From Thiobacillus sp. (GTDB lineage Bacteria > Pseudomonadota > Gammaproteobacteria > Burkholderiales > Thiobacillaceae): a stretch of 64,000 nucleotides of DNA. Position 1 is the stretch's first letter. Each line of letters opens with the position of its first letter. Positions 4,891-64,000 of this stretch are shown here, piece after piece. A program made the translations under genes and the position numbers. The notes beneath the pieces are model-generated. The model made no database searches. It was not told where the DNA came from and worked only from the letters and a program-made list of their open reading frames with translations. Location of the stretch: the NCBI GenBank assembly GCA_021166845.1, contig JAJPEP010000108.1:1-64000 (forward strand). Reading direction: 5' to 3'.

Positions 4891-5313
4891 CCGGACCCCG
4901 CCGGCTTGGCCCGGGCAGCACCTGGACGCCGGCAGCGCGGATTCCTTGCGCAACCGGCGCGATTCGCCGCGCGTGACGCGTCGCCGCGATCACGTTCTTG
5001 ATCACTTCCTGGCAGCCTGAACATTCCACCGGGCTGGGCCGCGCCCACCCGCTTTTCCGGGCCCGCGCAAGCCATGGGCAACCTAGCGGTTTCGGCGATC
5101 GCGGCCATCCTTTTTCCCGAGCGAAACCGTCCGGGTGACAATTTTTTACTGCTCAAAACACCGGCATCCCCGAAGGCATACCCGGCAGCCGTGATGCCTA
5201 TACAATGGTCGCCTGCCAGGCAGGCCATGCTTTCGCCAGAACCGGGACGCATCGCTTGCCATCGACAACCCGCCGGTGCAACCGCCAAACCGAGTTTCCA
5301 CTCCCAAACGCTT

Positions 5314-6498
5314 ATGTCCTCTCCGCTCAACCCGACCAGGCGCCCTGCAAGATTCGCGCTGTTTGCCCTGGGCTTTCGGCCCTTTTTCCTTGCTGCCGGC
5401 TTGTTCGCCGTCGTGCTGCTGGGGCTGTGGCTGGCCATCCTTCAGGGGAAAATCGCAAGCGGGCCGCTGGCCCCCGCCGTCTGGCACGGCCATGAAATGC
5501 TGTTCGGCTATACCGCGGCGGTGATCGCCGGCTTCCTGCTCGCCGCGGCGCAGAACTGGACCGGCATCCGCACGCCGTCGGGCCCGCCGCTGGCCGCGCT
5601 GTTCCTGTTGTGGCTGGCAGGCCGGCTCTGCTTTCTGGTGCCTGGCCTGCCGGCCGGGCTGGTCGCGCTGGTCGACCTGCTGTTCTTTCCGGCGCTGGCT
5701 CTGACACTGGCCTGGCCGATCGTCAAGGCGAGGCAGCTGCACAACTATCCCTTCCCCGTCATGCTGCTGACGCTGGCCGCGGCCAACGCGCTGGTGCATG
5801 CGGAAGCGCTCGGCTGGATCGCGTCCAGCGCCAGCCTGGGCCTGCATCTCGCCGCCTATGTCGTGGTCATGATGATGGCCCTGATGGGCGGGCGGGTGAT
5901 TCCCTTCTTCACCGACAACAAGCTGCACACGTCCCCGCGGCGCTGGAGCATCATCGAACGGCTGGTGCCTGTCGCCACCCTTGCGGCGCTGCTTGCCGCC
6001 TTGATCGCATCCGTGTCGCCGGTCACCGCACTGCTCGCGGCAATCGCGGCAACGGTGCATTTCACCCGGGTGGCGGGCTGGTATGCCGGCAAGGTCTGGT
6101 CGGTGCCGCTGCTGTGGATTTTGCATCTGGGTTACGCCTGGATCGCGCTCGGCTTCGCGCTGCTTGCGCTGTCGGCCGCGGGGGTGGGCGCCGCAACCAG
6201 CGCTTCGCTGCATGCCTTCACCACCGGCGGCATCGGGGTGATGACCCTCGGCATGATGGCGCGGGTGTCGCTCGGCCATACAGGCCGGCCGATCGACTCC
6301 GTCCCGCTGATGACGCTGGCCTTCGTCGCGATCAATCTCGCGGCGCTGATCCGCGTCGCGCTGCCCTTGTTCTTTCCGGCGGTTTATACGGCAGGCCTCA
6401 CCGTTGCCGGATTGGCCTGGATGTCCGCGTTCGGCCTGTTCGCCGCGATCTACGCGCCCATGCTGCTGCGCCCGCGGATCGACGGCAAGGCGGGCTGA
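5314..6498 (+). CDS. nnrS: NnrS family protein
   Basis: Multi-TM protein; FALGFRPFFLAAGLFA, VWHGHEMLFGYTAAVIAGFLLAAAQNWTG; ATG at 5314 chosen inside longer ORF. Confidence 0.92.
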   Translation: MSSPLNPTRRPARFALFALGFRPFFLAAGLFAVVLLGLWLAILQGKIASGPLAPAVWHGHEMLFGYTAAVIAGFLLAAAQNWTGIRTPSGPPLAALFLLWLAGRLCFLVPGLPAGLVALVDLLFFPALALTLAWPIVKARQLHNYPFPVMLLTLAAANALVHAEALGWIASSASLGLHLAAYVVVMMMALMGGRVIPFFTDNKLHTSPRRWSIIERLVPVATLAALLAALIASVSPVTALLAAIAATVHFTRVAGWYAGKVWSVPLLWILHLGYAWIALGFALLALSAAGVGAATSASLHAFTTGGIGVMTLGMMARVSLGHTGRPIDSVPLMTLAFVAINLAALIRVALPLFFPAVYTAGLTVAGLAWMSAFGLFAAIYAPMLLRPRIDGKAG

Positions 6499-6571: not shown

Positions 6572-8395
6572 ATGAACCGTCTTGCGCACTGCACCCGCTG
6601 GCTTGTCCTCTGCCTGCTGTCATCCCCGCTGCTGGCCGCCTCGCCCGACGGCGTGGTGGCGGTATCGCACCCGGCCGCGGCGGCCGCCGGCGCGCGCGTG
6701 CTGGCACAGGGCGGCAACGCCATCGACGCCGCGGCCGCGGTGCAGTTCGCGCTCAACGTGGTCGAACCGCAGTCTTCCGGCATCGGCGGCGGCGGCTTCA
6801 TGCTGGTCCATCTCGCCAAAACCGGCGAAAGTTTCATCGTCGATTCGCGCGAGCGCGCCCCGGCTGCGGCCAGCGCCGACATGTTCGCGCCCGATGGCCT
6901 GCCGATGCAGTTTCCGCTGGCCTCGACCAGCGGCCTGGCGGTGGGCGTGCCGGGCACCCTGCGCGGCGTCGACACCGCGCTGCGCCGCTGGGGCACATTC
7001 AAATTGGCGGATACGCTGGCGCCCGCCATCGAACTGGCCGAGCACGGCTTTCGCGTCAACCGCTTCCTCGCGGCCGACATCGCCAACGACGGCGGCCGCA
7101 CCCGGCTGCAGCCGGAAACCGCCGCGATCTTTCGCCCCGGCGGCATGCCACTGGCCGAGGGCGACTGGCTGGTGCAGCCCGACCTGGCGAAGACCCTGAA
7201 GCGGATCGCCGCCGGGGGACCGAACGCCTTCTATCGCGGCCCCCTGGCACGGGCGATCGTCAACGCCCAGCAGCGCACGCGCAGCGAGCTCGGCGCAGCC
7301 GGAAAGGGCCGCATGACACTGGCCGACCTCGACCAGTATCGCGTGGCAATCCGCCAGCCGCTGGTCGGCCATTACCGCGGCTGGACGCTGGCGGGCATGC
7401 CGCCGCCCTCTTCCGGCGGCCTCACCATGCTGCAGATGCTGGGCCTGCTGGAGCGCTTTCCGCTCGGCGACGCCGCGCAGGGATACGGCTTCGGCAGTCC
7501 GCACACCCTGCACGCGATGATCGAGGCGATGCGCCTGGCGTTCGCCGATCGCGCGGTGTGGATCGGCGACGACGACGCCGTGCCGGTGCCGCTTCATGGG
7601 CTGCTGCATGCCGACTACCTCGCCGCGCGCGCAGCCTTGATCAAACCCGACCGCCGCATGGACACGCCGCAGGCAGGCGACCCGCTGCCCTGGGATGCCG
7701 CCACCGCCGCGCGGCGCAAGCCGTCGCCCGCCGGGCGGCAAAGCCCCCACACCACGCACTTTTCCATCGTCGACCGCTGGGGCAACGTGGTGAGCTACAC
7801 CAGCACCATCGAGTTCACCTGGGGGTCTGGCATCACCGTCCCGGGCTACGGCTTCCTGCTCAACAACGAGCTGACCGACTTCAATTTCGTGCCTGCGGCC
7901 GACGCCGCGACCGGCAACCCCGGCGCCAACGACGTCGCCCCCGCCAAACGCCCGCGCTCCAGCATGGCGCCGACGCTGCTGTTCAGGCACGGCAAGCCGG
8001 TCGCCGCCTACGGTTCGCCCGGCGGCGCGACCATCATCAACTCGGTGCTCAATGTCACGCTCAACCTCATCGACCACGGCATGCCCCTGCAGCAGGCCAT
8101 CGCCGCGCCCCGCCTGTCGGTGACCCACGCAGCGGGGCGGGTGAGTTGCGAAGGCGGCGCCGCGTTCATGCGGCCGGATTTCAGCGTCGCCGCCCAGGAT
8201 GCCTTGCGCAAGCTGGGGCATATCGGCCTGGGCGAAACGGGGACGGATGGCTGCCGGGCAACGATCGGCTCGGTGCAGGCAGTCGCCATCGACCTCGCGA
8301 CGGGCGCCCATCACGGCGCGGCCGACCCGCGCCGCGAGGGCACGGTCATCCAGGTCGAACCGGTGCGGACCCTGCCGGAACCCGCGCCCGATTGA
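6572..8395 (+). CDS. ggt: Gamma-glutamyltransferase
   Basis: Signal peptide, QGGNAIDAAAAVQFALNVVEPQSSGIGGGGFML, THFSIVDRWGNVVSYTSTIEFTWGSG. Confidence 0.94.
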   Translation: MNRLAHCTRWLVLCLLSSPLLAASPDGVVAVSHPAAAAAGARVLAQGGNAIDAAAAVQFALNVVEPQSSGIGGGGFMLVHLAKTGESFIVDSRERAPAAASADMFAPDGLPMQFPLASTSGLAVGVPGTLRGVDTALRRWGTFKLADTLAPAIELAEHGFRVNRFLAADIANDGGRTRLQPETAAIFRPGGMPLAEGDWLVQPDLAKTLKRIAAGGPNAFYRGPLARAIVNAQQRTRSELGAAGKGRMTLADLDQYRVAIRQPLVGHYRGWTLAGMPPPSSGGLTMLQMLGLLERFPLGDAAQGYGFGSPHTLHAMIEAMRLAFADRAVWIGDDDAVPVPLHGLLHADYLAARAALIKPDRRMDTPQAGDPLPWDAATAARRKPSPAGRQSPHTTHFSIVDRWGNVVSYTSTIEFTWGSGITVPGYGFLLNNELTDFNFVPAADAATGNPGANDVAPAKRPRSSMAPTLLFRHGKPVAAYGSPGGATIINSVLNVTLNLIDHGMPLQQAIAAPRLSVTHAAGRVSCEGGAAFMRPDFSVAAQDALRKLGHIGLGETGTDGCRATIGSVQAVAIDLATGAHHGAADPRREGTVIQVEPVRTLPEPAPD

Positions 8396-58813: not shown

Positions 58814-59445
58814 TCAAGAAACAGCTTGATGCATTATTATCTTCATGGAAATTCAAGGAGGCGCCTCGGTCCACTCGCTACAGGCGATGCTCTTATACTA
58901 CGTATCTATCCGTAACAACAAGACAAAAGCAGACAAAATGCGCAGCAGTAAACAAACAGGACGATATCGCCACACGTTACTGTTTTGATTCATTGTGTTG
59001 ACTCATTTCGGCAGCTGGAAACGTCACCGGCAGCCGGCGCCAAGCCATGCTTGCGGCGCTGCTATCATCTTCTTCTCGAGTATTATCTGGCTATTCACAG
59101 GGAACCTCTTCCCAAAACGATTTTATCGCTACGGTTCAACTACATTATCCCCTTGCATCGGGTTGCCACATCCGGACCAATCTGCAATTAAACGCACTCA
59201 AATTATTGTTTTGACTGGAAAATACCTTGCTTGACAAGGCAATCGAAAAACATACGCCGATTGTGTTAGGACACTGAGTTGGCGCGCTGCCATGGATCTG
59301 CATTCATATTTAATATCAATAAGTTATGGCGACAACAACCATCGCCTCACAGAGCTCGAATTGGCATAGATGGGCATAGTTTGGCGCCCAAATTGCCCCA
59401 AATTTGCCCCACGAAATTGGACCGCATACCGGGGCATAGCCAGTC

Positions 59446-59679
59446 GTGTACGAACGTAAGTTTCAAGAGGCTAAGCGTCAGCTTGGCGGTGCGGACGAGG
59501 TCATCAACCTCTGGCCGCAAGCCTACGGCACCAGCCCATGGAATGCCGTCCTGAAGGACAAGCTGGAGAATCGCCTTCACAAAGAGATGTGCGCCGGAGC
59601 CATTACGCTGAAACAGGCCCGTGGAATGCTCGTTGCCGATTGGCGCGAAGCGTACAAGAAATACTATCCCGCCCCGTAA
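59446..59679 (+). pseudogene. Probable 3' fragment of a larger (HNH-like?) hypothetical protein
   Basis: LGGADEVINLWPQAYGTSPWNAVLKDKLENRLHKEMCAGAITLKQARGMLVADWREAYKKYY; looks like the C-terminal half of a longer family. Confidence 0.5.
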
Positions 59680-59882
59680 ATCCATCGGGCTGCAGGCACG
59701 TCCGTTGCTCGGCCGAAGCCGCCGGTCGGGCTAACAGTTCAATATGACCGGTGTTCGGAATTTACCCGACAACGCGCTAGCATCCGAGTTCTGCTGTCAG
59801 TTTGCATTTATTCGACCTTGACCCCTGTGATTTGATCTTGGCCGAGCAATCCAGCATTAAGGGGTAAAACCGGAGATATTTG

Positions 59883-60209
59883 ATGACACTCGCACCGAGA
59901 CGACTCTTGCCCATCATCACTCTAGTCGTGGCTTCAAACGCGCAGGCCATTACCAGTACCGAATACCGTGCACTCCAAGAGGCCCAGCGACAGGCCTGGG
60001 TTGTCGGCGCGGTCGACGGAATCCTAACTGCCCAACTGTGGCAGACCAACAAAGAGCCGGAAATATCAAAATGTCTTGTGGGATTGCATCCAACACAGAT
60101 AAAGGCAATCTTCGAAAAAGCACTTGAGGCAAATCCGGAGCGCTGGCACTTTCCCGCAGCCTTCCAACTCTTCGATACTCTTCAAGAGTTCTGCACAGTA
60201 AGAAAGTAG
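59883..60209 (+). CDS. Small secreted protein, Rap1a/Tai-like
   Basis: Signal peptide (LLPIITLVVASNAQA), VVGAVDGILTA, CLVGLHPTQIKAIFEKALEANPERWHFPAAFQLFDTLQEFC. Confidence 0.55.
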   Translation: MTLAPRRLLPIITLVVASNAQAITSTEYRALQEAQRQAWVVGAVDGILTAQLWQTNKEPEISKCLVGLHPTQIKAIFEKALEANPERWHFPAAFQLFDTLQEFCTVRK

Positions 60210-60216
60210 CCCTGCC

Positions 60217-61431
60217 ATGAGCGATGACTACGAATACTTCAAGAACAAGAGGCCGGATCGGGTCTACCTAAGTCGCTCGCTTTCGCAAAAGCAATACCGC
60301 AAGAATGATGCGGGAGAGGTTGAAGAGTTTGAACGCCCTTTCCGGGTTGTCTCAAAGGTCATCGACTGCGGAGAGTCCCATCAGTTCTTCAAGGATGGAA
60401 AGCAAGTCTCCCTCCGAATTACCGACGGTGTTCGCCAGGAAGTCGTCGCAAAGTTTTACGAAGACACACGAGGCGTCTTCACACTTCAGATACAGCGTTA
60501 CACGGTTGAGAGTGGCGCACCCCACAGCACCCACTTCACGTTCATCAACGAAGAAATCTCCACTCTCTACAACTTCCTCCGAAACATAGACGTCCTTCCA
60601 TTGCGAGACGATCAAGGCGCAAAGCTGGACGACAAGTTTGTTTCCAGTCTCGTGCTCACGCGCGAACAGGCGCTTGGTCTGCTCAACTCCCAACCCGGCC
60701 TCGTTGAAGAGCTGGTCAGAACGCAGGTGACTGCGCAAGACGTTGCCGAACTCGGCCACCGCCGAGAACAGCTCGCAGAGTTCGAGCGGCTTCTCAATGA
60801 TTCACAACACTTCGAATCTCGGCGCGTCAGCTTGGGATCGAACAAGGGGCCAGAAGCGGTTTGGCAGTCGTTCTTTGAACAGAACACTTGGATCTTCGGC
60901 TATGGCTTGAACTATGTTTTCAATGCACCGCTGGACGGTGCAAAGCTTGAGCGCGCAGTGAAAGGGCATGATTTCGCCAGCGCTGGCAAGCGAGTTGATG
61001 CCCTATTGAAGACCCAGGGCCTCATCAGCGCATTGTCATTCGGAGAAATCAAGACGCACACCGCCGAGTTACTTAAGCCTGTCGCTTCAGCCTATCGCCG
61101 GGAGTGCTGGCAGGTTTCCGATGAACTGGCCGGAGGTATCGCTCAGGTTCACCGATCTGTGCAGGCTTCGTTGGGAAACATTCGTTCGAAGACAGAAATG
61201 AAAGATGACGCCGGCGCACTAACCGGCGAGTCAGTCTTCTTGTATCAACCCCGCTCTTTCTTGGTCATCGGCTCACTATCAGAGTTTCATGCTGCACATG
61301 GCATCAACGAGGATAAGTACTCGTCGTTCGAGCTCTTTCGGCGCAATCTCAAGTCGCCCGAGGTTGTCACATTCGATGAGCTATTTGCGCGAGCGAAGTA
61401 CATCGTGGAAAGCGGCGGTCAGGCAAAGTGA
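60217..61431 (+). CDS. Shedu-type anti-phage nuclease (DUF4263 / SduA-like)
   Basis: EAVWQSFFEQNTWIFGYGLNYVF, GKRVDALLKTQGLISALSFGEIKTHTAELL (PD-(D/E)XK core), YRRECWQVSDELAGGIAQV. Confidence 0.82.
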   Translation: MSDDYEYFKNKRPDRVYLSRSLSQKQYRKNDAGEVEEFERPFRVVSKVIDCGESHQFFKDGKQVSLRITDGVRQEVVAKFYEDTRGVFTLQIQRYTVESGAPHSTHFTFINEEISTLYNFLRNIDVLPLRDDQGAKLDDKFVSSLVLTREQALGLLNSQPGLVEELVRTQVTAQDVAELGHRREQLAEFERLLNDSQHFESRRVSLGSNKGPEAVWQSFFEQNTWIFGYGLNYVFNAPLDGAKLERAVKGHDFASAGKRVDALLKTQGLISALSFGEIKTHTAELLKPVASAYRRECWQVSDELAGGIAQVHRSVQASLGNIRSKTEMKDDAGALTGESVFLYQPRSFLVIGSLSEFHAAHGINEDKYSSFELFRRNLKSPEVVTFDELFARAKYIVESGGQAK

Positions 61432-61432
61432 C

Positions 61433-61502
61433 GCCCAACCCTTCCATCGAGAGGACATGCCCGGGCTAGCCGGGGCATGTCCTCTCATGTCAAACGTTGA
61501 CC
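61433..61502 (+). other. attC-like (59-base-element-like) quasi-palindrome; could alternatively be a terminator hairpin
   Basis: GCCCAAC at the start, CAAACGTTGACC at the end, inner stem AGAGGACATGCCC / GGGCATGTCCTCT, starts one base after the Shedu stop codon. Confidence 0.55.
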
Positions 61503-61978
61503 GGTAAGTGCTGAACACCGGACACAAAGAGCGAACAGTCTGAGTGACTGCTCAGGCCGATGAAAAGACAATCGCCGTTATCGAATTAACCTCTGCTTCT
61601 GGTCGAACGCAGGCAGCGGGGACTCTCTCTATTCGGCCTGTAGTTTTCTTTAGTTGCCTATAAAAGACGAATCCTGCGGGGGAACCAATACCAGTTCCGC
61701 CTGGCCAATAGTTACTGTTTCATTTTGGCACAAGTCCGCGTGCCGGCAGCGCGAGCCGGGTTGGCGGCTTCTGGGCAGCGCGCGCAGCCCGGTACCCTTG
61801 CGGGACACAGGAATGTTGGATTTCTCGCAGATCTTGCCGAGGGGACCTCGGTCTTCGCCTTGCTACAGACTTTAAGGGGTGTTACTACGCAAACTGGCCC
61901 AAAGCTGCATTCCAGCGACGTCACCCATGCGAATTAAAGCTTTGCTAAACTCAGTTCGACCTTGAGACAGCCTGGACC

Positions 61979-64000
61979 GTGACGAGCCCTGTAGACCGCA
62001 ACCACCCCCCCTGCCCCTCGCAATGGATCGTCTCCGAGCCCGAGGAGATGCCCACCGCGCCAGTCGGCGATCTCGTCATGGCGTGGGCTCGCGACCGTGC
62101 CACGGACGAGCCTCGGTATATCGGCGAGTTGAGCGCTCAGCAGCGTGGCAAGCACTGCAACTGCGAGTGCCTCAGCTGCGGTTTGCTTCTGGTGGCGGTC
62201 AATGCGGGCAAGCAATCGTTTATCCGCCGTCCCCACTTCAGGCACCCGGAAGGTGCCGAAAAGGACTCCTGCCTCGTCCTTGCAGCGCGCGCGGCGGCGT
62301 TGGAGGTGCTAAAGGGCACGGATCTTCTCGAACTGCCACGTCGCCGCCAGTCCCGTCGCATCGCTGGCCTCAGTGGGCAGTACTACGAGGCCTGGGTCGA
62401 GGCGCCGGCCGAGCGTGTCCGCGTCCGGGACCTCGCCTTTCAGGACAAGGTCAGCGGCATCCTGACACTCGATGATGGCAGACGGCTGCGAGTGGAGTTG
62501 ACAGGAAGTGTCAGTGCAGTCCCGGCCGGCGCATCTGAAACCCTAATTCCAACGATTCGCTTGGTCGTTGACGATCCAACTATCGCGGCCATGCCTCCCA
62601 GCGAGATCCGGAAGCGCCTCCGTCTCCTGGTGGAGAACGGAATCTGGTGTTCGCATTGGAACGACGCGAAGCTCGAGCAGGATGCGGAAGCAGCAGCGCA
62701 GGAATCCGCGCGCGCGGCTCTCGACTGGATAGAGGAAGGCGCGGATCTGCCGGAAGGGCTTAGCCCGGCAGCGAGACGTGAAACACTTCTGCACCTCAAG
62801 GCCAAAGAAATCCTAGAGCGCGAGAAGCGCATCAGACTGCCTGACCTGACAGCCGAATTGGACGCGGCTACAGACGACGGCGACGTCCTGTCCAGGCAGT
62901 TCTTGGTGCTCGGGCGGGTCGTCAACCTCGAGGCGGTAGCCCTGGAGCAACCGCTAGGTAGAATCCGGCCGGACGTCGTCGCCACCACCATCGCCGCTCC
63001 AGATTGGCCGGCGAGCCAGATCCTGGTCGAGATCACGGTCACCAACACCATTTCAGATGAGCGCATGGAGCGCATCCGGGCGCAGAACGTACCCGCGATC
63101 GAAATTGACATCTCTCGGATGGGCGGCATCGTGACGGAAACAGAGTTCGCAAGGTTGGTCGTCGAGGAGGCCGCCGGCAAGCGATGGCTACATCACCCCA
63201 GACTCGCCGAGGAAACGGCCAGGCTCGAGGAGGAGCTTGCGGCCGCAGTTAACGAGGCGAACCAGCAGATCCAGGAACTTTTGGAGAGCGATCGGCGACG
63301 CCGGGAGATGCAGCGGATACCTGCTGAGCAATGGGCCAGGGAATATCTTGACGCTGTTCTAGAGTACGCCGCGCTCCGCGAGCAAATGGAGGGTGATGCC
63401 AGCCTACGGCCCGACGTGGATCTGGCCTTCGGCCGAATTGCTGAGTGCGCCGACGGCCTTGCCGTGCACGGCTATCTCGAAGCTCAGGACCGCGACCTCT
63501 ATGGCTGGCGGGGCAACCTCTTGGAGCGGATCCTCTCAATCAAGCTAAACCGTGCCGTCGGCTACCAGCTGACCACGGCCTGGCAAGTTATCAACGCCAT
63601 TCTTCAGGAGGGGGCGTCTCATTTTCAGTGGCACACGCTGTACCTGATCGCGATCCGGCGATACCAGCCAACGCTCGCGCCTCATCAGGCCGCAAAGATC
63701 GCTAAGTGGCGAGAAGGAGTGCTGCACAGCCTTGATGCTGGAGAGCGAGCTTATCAACGGAGCCGCAAGTATGACAGCCTGCTGGCGCTGCTATTTCCTG
63801 AGATGGCGGACGCGCTTGCAAAGCCGCTGGCGAAACCGAGGATTGGCGCCCCGGATGGATCTCCTGCAGCCCCCGCCAACCTTCTGAGCGAGCGGACTGC
63901 TCCGCAGGAAGGCTACGTCGAGGTAGGATACCGAAACTCCAGACTGCGCCTACCCGTTCGGGGTTGCGACGCGTGGTTGGCGGCCAATCCAGGCTGGGAG
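61979..64000 (+). CDS. Large CoiA-like / PD-(D/E)XK nuclease-like protein with N-terminal Cys cluster, 3' end beyond window
   Basis: Manual translation, GTG start assumed; open to the window end (674 codons), absent from ORF track. CNCECLSCG, SFIRRPHFRHPEGAEKD, GRIRPDVVATTIAAPDWPASQILVEITVTN. Confidence 0.7.
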   Translation, partial: MTSPVDRNHPPCPSQWIVSEPEEMPTAPVGDLVMAWARDRATDEPRYIGELSAQQRGKHCNCECLSCGLLLVAVNAGKQSFIRRPHFRHPEGAEKDSCLVLAARAAALEVLKGTDLLELPRRRQSRRIAGLSGQYYEAWVEAPAERVRVRDLAFQDKVSGILTLDDGRRLRVELTGSVSAVPAGASETLIPTIRLVVDDPTIAAMPPSEIRKRLRLLVENGIWCSHWNDAKLEQDAEAAAQESARAALDWIEEGADLPEGLSPAARRETLLHLKAKEILEREKRIRLPDLTAELDAATDDGDVLSRQFLVLGRVVNLEAVALEQPLGRIRPDVVATTIAAPDWPASQILVEITVTNTISDERMERIRAQNVPAIEIDISRMGGIVTETEFARLVVEEAAGKRWLHHPRLAEETARLEEELAAAVNEANQQIQELLESDRRRREMQRIPAEQWAREYLDAVLEYAALREQMEGDASLRPDVDLAFGRIAECADGLAVHGYLEAQDRDLYGWRGNLLERILSIKLNRAVGYQLTTAWQVINAILQEGASHFQWHTLYLIAIRRYQPTLAPHQAAKIAKWREGVLHSLDAGERAYQRSRKYDSLLALLFPEMADALAKPLAKPRIGAPDGSPAAPANLLSERTAPQEGYVEVGYRNSRLRLPVRGCDAWLAANPGWE

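What the first reader, a model, noticed from the sequence alone, without database searches (positions are those of the whole stretch)
61433..61502. attC-like site abutting the Shedu stop codon: possible integron cassette-borne defence
One base after the TGA begins GCCCAACCCTTCCATCGAGAGGACATGCCCGGGCTAGCCGGGGCATGTCCTCTCATGTCAAACGTTGACC. It has an RYYYAAC-like start, a CAAACGTT-type end, and a quasi-palindromic inner stem, at the position where cassette attC sites sit relative to their ORF. If correct, the Shedu gene (perhaps with the Rap1a-like gene) was acquired as a gene cassette. The end box GTTGACC is not a perfect GTTRRRY, and no intI or upstream attC was found in the window.
Basis: partly seen in the sequence, partly recalled or inferred. 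Interest (0 to 1): 0.75.

Follow-up and report, generated by a model that had tools for sequence, protein, structure and literature searches.

The report
Shedu defence gene in integron cassette
The hairpin just after an anti-phage (Shedu) gene is a genuine integron recombination site (attC), so this defence gene was shuffled into the chromosome as an integron gene cassette; that kind of defence-gene traffic is already documented, which makes this a solid new example rather than a new principle.

Summary
A covariance model built from five attC sites on this genome's intI-bearing contigs, without the window site, finds window 61433-61501(+) at 39.3 bits (E 2.2e-6 over the 3.2-Mb genome). Its bottom strand folds like the reference attCs, with the extrahelical base. 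The genome has three integron integrases, on other contigs. The closest sduA relative (96% protein identity, another gammaproteobacterial MAG) has the same attC, a cassette core GTTGGGC about 40 bp before its ATG, and a broken intI beside it; DNA similarity covers sduA plus attC and falls to noise at the crossover point. The imperfect box GTTGACC is explained: its right half is not cassette DNA but a repeat (R_end), found in 34 of 57 genus genomes, that lies directly right of an attC in 18 of 30 loci. The window attC is thus the last of an array. Not supported: that the Rap1a-like gene belongs to the cassette; the left boundary is rearranged. Terminator-only is rejected. Integron-borne defence, including Shedu in Xanthomonas cassettes, is already reported, so this is a new member of a known kind. 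R_end is the freshest by-product.

The parts
60217..61431 (+). sduA, single-gene Shedu nuclease, 404 aa; the cassette gene
   Evidence: PADLOC PDLC00394 502.8 bits; Pfam PF14082 93 bits; D261, E277, K279 conserved in relatives
61433..61502 (+). attC site; R'' 61433-61439, L'' 61445-61451 with extrahelical C61448, L' 61484-61489, R' 61496-61502
   Evidence: covariance models R1 and R2 built without it; folds; box assignment read by eye from the fold and alignment
61449..61486 (.). inner quasi-palindromic stem of the attC
   Evidence: 19-nt arms, 95% complementary; unique in the genome
61496..61497 (+). predicted crossover between G and TT; similarity to the L036 cassette falls to noise from here
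   Evidence: position of crossover from established knowledge of IntI recombination
61497..61562 (+). R_end, array-terminal repeat of the genus, abutting the attC
   Evidence: model R3 60.4 bits; attC directly left of R_end in 18 of 30 loci
59707..59772 (-). inverted second copy of R_end on the left of the Rap1a-like gene
   Evidence: model R3 51.6 bits; longer repeat 59699-59832 matches G026 at 87%
59880..60209 (+). Rap1a-like ORF (109 aa), between left R_end and sduA; membership in the cassette not supported
   Evidence: PF18602 22.4 bits, below cut-off 27.7; no relatives found

Best explanation
The site is a true integron attC and the Shedu gene sduA is an integron gene cassette, now lying as the last cassette of a small array without an integrase (CALIN-like). 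The most likely history: an integron integrase folded the bottom strand of the attC and recombined it between G and TT of the R' box, placing sduA in an array whose right end is the R_end repeat. The intI/attI side of this copy was later lost or rearranged, leaving an inverted R_end copy and a Rap1a-like gene on the left. The integrases encoded on other contigs (C32, C56) could in principle act on this site. The product is expected to work like other Shedu nucleases, as a PD-(D/E)XK nuclease against phage. Shown here: attC by model and fold; intI and attC arrays in the genome; the same cassette beside an intI remnant elsewhere; similarity ending at the crossover; R_end marking array ends. Inferred: the recombination event, present mobility, expression and defence activity.
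For: Models built without the site find it. Bottom-strand fold with extrahelical base. Three IntI over the TIGR02249 cut-off in the genome; C32 has four attC cassettes and an open 351-aa intI frame. L036: sduA 96% identical, attC at 6217-6285 (44.4 bits), core GTTGGGC at 4961-4967 complementary to its R'' GCCCAAC, intI C-terminus beside it, second attC after it. Identity window/L036: sduA 1137/1215, attC 59/64, flanks about 50% against a shuffle mean of 47%. R_end directly right of attC in 18 of 30 loci and at the end of a full intI-cassettes-attC integron in G022. A 42% SduA relative in G113 also follows an attC. Positive control: the attC at R_end in G033 is 98% identical to the aadA6 attC of plasmids.
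Against: No intI, attI or second attC on the searched parts of this contig. The left cassette boundary (expected TTGGGC) is missing; similarity to L036 starts only 4 bp before the ATG. Relatives L037 (87%) and L038 (66%) have no attC, so sduA also travels without one. The genome is a fragmented assembly, 86% complete and 6% contaminated.
Confidence: 0.92

Rival explanations
1. The hairpin is only an intrinsic transcription terminator of sduA.
For: Strong GC-rich hairpin right after the stop codon; any attC may also slow transcription.
Against: No T tract follows (ATGTCAAACG) and the terminator scan calls nothing there; a terminator does not predict conserved R''/R' boxes, the L'' bulge, the model scores or similarity ending at GTT.
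Confidence: 0.03
2. The attC is real, but the locus moves as a non-integron mobile unit bounded by inverted R_end repeats, and integrase activity played no recent part.
For: Inverted R_end pair around rap1a-sduA-attC; similar pairs around an IS110-like gene and around an intI remnant with two attC in G026; 1-6 dispersed R_end copies per genome.
Against: Only four inverted pairs among about 65 hits; most R_end copies lie just right of an attC on one side only; R_end ends a full integron in G022; no target duplication seen by eye.
Confidence: 0.2
3. A two-gene cassette (Rap1a-like gene plus sduA) was captured together.
For: The two ORFs are 7 bp apart on the same strand; the left cassette start is not visible downstream of the Rap1a-like gene.
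Against: The L036 cassette holds sduA alone with its own core site 33 bp before the ATG; no relative of the Rap1a-like protein in 398 order genomes or plasmids; no core site found upstream of it. Fusion of two cassettes by deletion of an attC stays possible.
Confidence: 0.15

Closest known systems
Integron gene cassettes with attC sites (intI-bearing integrons of the same genome, contig C32; aadA-type cassettes of class 1 integrons)
   Same: attC architecture, position right after the stop codon, orientation, crossover box, stem with extrahelical base
   Different: no integrase or attI on this contig; left cassette boundary lost; terminal R' box deviates by one base
CALIN (attC clusters lacking an integrase; PMC9024848)
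   Same: attC-bearing array end without intI in reach
   Different: only one attC here, below the two-site default of IntegronFinder 2; that paper notes single-site cases can be true
Anti-phage genes in integron cassettes (Darracq, Kieffer and Getz 2025, as cited in PMC12444791 and PMC12409362; Shedu in Xanthomonas cassettes, PMC12444791)
   Same: defence gene carried as a cassette; Shedu already named once
   Different: different lineage; cassette delimited here by a second genome; defence activity not tested

Membership tests
integron attC site | R''/R' core boxes RYYYAAC ... GTTRRRY | tested here: met
   GCCCAAC perfect; GTTGACC one mismatch, in the half that comes from the flank
integron attC site | bottom strand folds into a stem with R and L boxes and extrahelical base | tested here: met
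integron attC site | significant covariance-model score | tested here: met
   R1 E 2.2e-6 genome-wide, R2 E 3.2e-8 over 153 kb; site excluded from both models; curated IntegronFinder model not on hand
integron attC site | IntI-mediated recombination | not testable with these tools
   needs a bench assay
integron gene cassette | ORF followed closely by attC and preceded by a core site complementary to its R'' | tested here: inconclusive
   met in L036; in the window the right side is met, the left core site is missing
complete integron | intI and attI next to the array | tested here: not met
   intI only on other contigs
Shedu (SduA) | DUF4263/SduA_C PD-(D/E)XK domain | tested here: met
Shedu (SduA) | phage protection | not testable with these tools
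   no experiment
intrinsic terminator | stem followed by a T tract | tested here: not met

The most novel reading that the evidence does not exclude
Integrons of this genus are bounded by a conserved repeat (R_end) that, in inverted pairs, acts as the ends of a mobilisable unit and disperses short cassette arrays, including the Shedu cassette, to many chromosomal loci away from the integrase.
Probability: 0.2. Interest if true: 0.62.

Novelty: new member of a known kind. Interest (0 to 1): 0.42.

Why it matters
It adds a Shedu cassette, delimited by comparison of two genomes, to the recent view that integrons store anti-phage genes, in an environmental lineage rich in integrons. The conserved array-end repeat gives a handle for recognising cassette arrays that lost their integrase, including single-attC cases that attC-only searches discount.

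Tried and rejected
Rfam gathering search of the window: no hits. Terminator reading: rejected. Rap1a-like gene as part of the cassette: no support. An upstream attC or cassette start in the window: none by model or by eye. R_end as an empty insertion target for cassettes: most copies carry attC ends, so no convincing empty sites. R_end as transposon ends: only four inverted pairs among about 65 hits, no target duplication seen by eye; left open. Viral-contig scan for sduA failed twice on the server. sduA not found in phage records; plasmid relatives all below 60% identity.

Full report
What is there. The ORF is SduA: PADLOC PDLC00394 at 502.8 bits and Pfam SduA_C at 93 bits, with D261 and E277-x-K279 conserved in relatives. 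The hairpin has two 19-nt arms at 95% complementarity. The bottom strand folds at -22.7 kcal/mol, z = -6.0.

Is it an attC? The genome (G000, 115 contigs, window on C38) has three matches over the integron-integrase cut-off: C56:4613-5557, C87:36445-37353 (lacks the first ten profile positions) and C32:30698-31639. C32 carries an open intI frame of 351 aa and four cassettes ending in attC; C87 carries one more attC. I built a covariance model from those five attCs only, with the structure I read from them. Over the whole genome it scores the window site at 39.3 bits, E 2.2e-6, among other attC sites; within the window it is the only hit below E = 1. A second model of 52 attCs from intI loci of this genome and relatives, again without the window, gives 45.6 bits. 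The fold shows the extrahelical base in L'' seen in reference sites. As a positive control, the attC that the models call in G033 (L045) is 98% identical to the aadA6 cassette attC found on plasmids.

Is sduA a cassette? The closest relative found, L036 (SCUJ01000011.1, a gammaproteobacterial MAG), is 96% identical in protein. It has an attC at the same distance from the stop (44.4 bits), a core GTTGGGC about 40 bp before the start codon, complementary to its R'' GCCCAAC, and upstream a 49-residue C-terminal fragment of an integron integrase, 72% identical to the C32 integrase over 47 residues. A second attC follows at 6962-7057. Aligned with the window, sduA is 1137/1215 identical and the attC 59/64; flanks on both sides fall to about 50%, against 47% for shuffled sequence. 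A more distant relative in G113 (42% identity) starts just behind an attC in another array. The 87% and 66% relatives have no attC, so the gene also moves by other means.

Why the R' box is imperfect. The right half of the last R' box in an array comes from the flank, not from the cassette (established knowledge of IntI recombination, between G and TT). DNA just right of the window attC, from 61497, is a repeat I call R_end. Relatives of it were found with a query that started beyond the attC stem. A sequence-only model from six relatives finds R_end in 34 of 57 genomes of the genus, at 60.4 bits in the window, but in few other genera of the order. In 18 of 30 R_end loci (window included) an attC lies within 12 bp to its left on the same strand (four of these attC calls are weak, E 0.04 to 0.14), and by eye others carry attC ends. 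In G022 a full integron, intI - cassette - attC - cassette - attC, ends in R_end, with junction G|TTGAATGGCGCTTTGACCG, where GTTGAAT fits GTTRRRY. The window junction GTTGACC looks like loss of 12 bp between two TTG repeats of that form (inference). So the window attC is the last attC of an array.

The left side. DNA from about 59262 onward is inserted relative to G006, whose kinase-side flank continues into another gene. A second, inverted R_end copy lies at 59707-59772, left of the Rap1a-like ORF. Inverted R_end copies also frame an IS110-like gene in G026 C4 (gene identity read by eye) and an intI N-terminal remnant with two attC in G026 C30 (remnant read by eye). I read the window locus as a degraded integron end whose intI side was lost, but a mobile unit with R_end ends is not excluded. 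The Rap1a-like ORF scores below the Pfam cut-off and is not in the L036 cassette; it is not claimed as part of the cassette.

Known or new. Integron cassettes as anti-phage reservoirs were reported in 2025 (Darracq, Kieffer and Getz, as cited in PMC12444791 and PMC12409362), and Shedu is named among Xanthomonas cassette hits (PMC12444791). The finding is therefore a new member of a known kind. I did not find R_end described, but searched the literature for it only lightly.

Limits. E-values from the session models are rough. The genome is an 86%-complete, 6%-contaminated assembly. No recombination, expression or defence was tested; no promoter-like site was found near the genes. The genus is unnamed in the tools; Thiobacillus is my guess from genome sizes and nothing here relies on it.

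Noticed in passing
window 61497-61562 (+) and 59707-59772 (-): R_end, a repeat present in 34 of 57 genus genomes (1-6 copies), sits directly right of the last attC of cassette arrays at many loci; function and mode of dispersal unknown.
   Followed up: partly
L065 (G026 C4) about 330-460 and 1200-1315; L117 (G026 C30) 611-670 and 2211-2276: Inverted R_end pairs frame an IS110-like gene in one place and an intI remnant plus two attC in another; an AAAGGGGCCAGGGTCGAATT repeat lies on the inner side of several copies.
   Followed up: partly
L045 1431-1491 (G033 C127): An attC 98% identical to the aadA6 attC of plasmids sits at the end of an array in an environmental relative.
   Followed up: partly
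G000 contigs C32, C56, C87, C109, C106, C62, C19, C78, C38 (L014-L016, L031-L034): The genome carries three integron integrases and 16 attC hits at E < 0.02 on nine contigs, several without intI nearby.
   Followed up: partly
L015 11430-14050 (G000 C87): The C87 integrase lacks its N-terminal end and runs into DNA that reads like other recombinase and transposase genes.
   Followed up: no
window 59251-59480 and 59480-59692: Two adjacent stretches match separate places in several genus genomes at 74-86% identity, suggesting a mosaic of mobile pieces left of the Rap1a-like gene.
   Followed up: no
window 61979-64000 (continues past the window end): Large ORF with no Pfam, NCBIfam or PADLOC match.
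   Followed up: no
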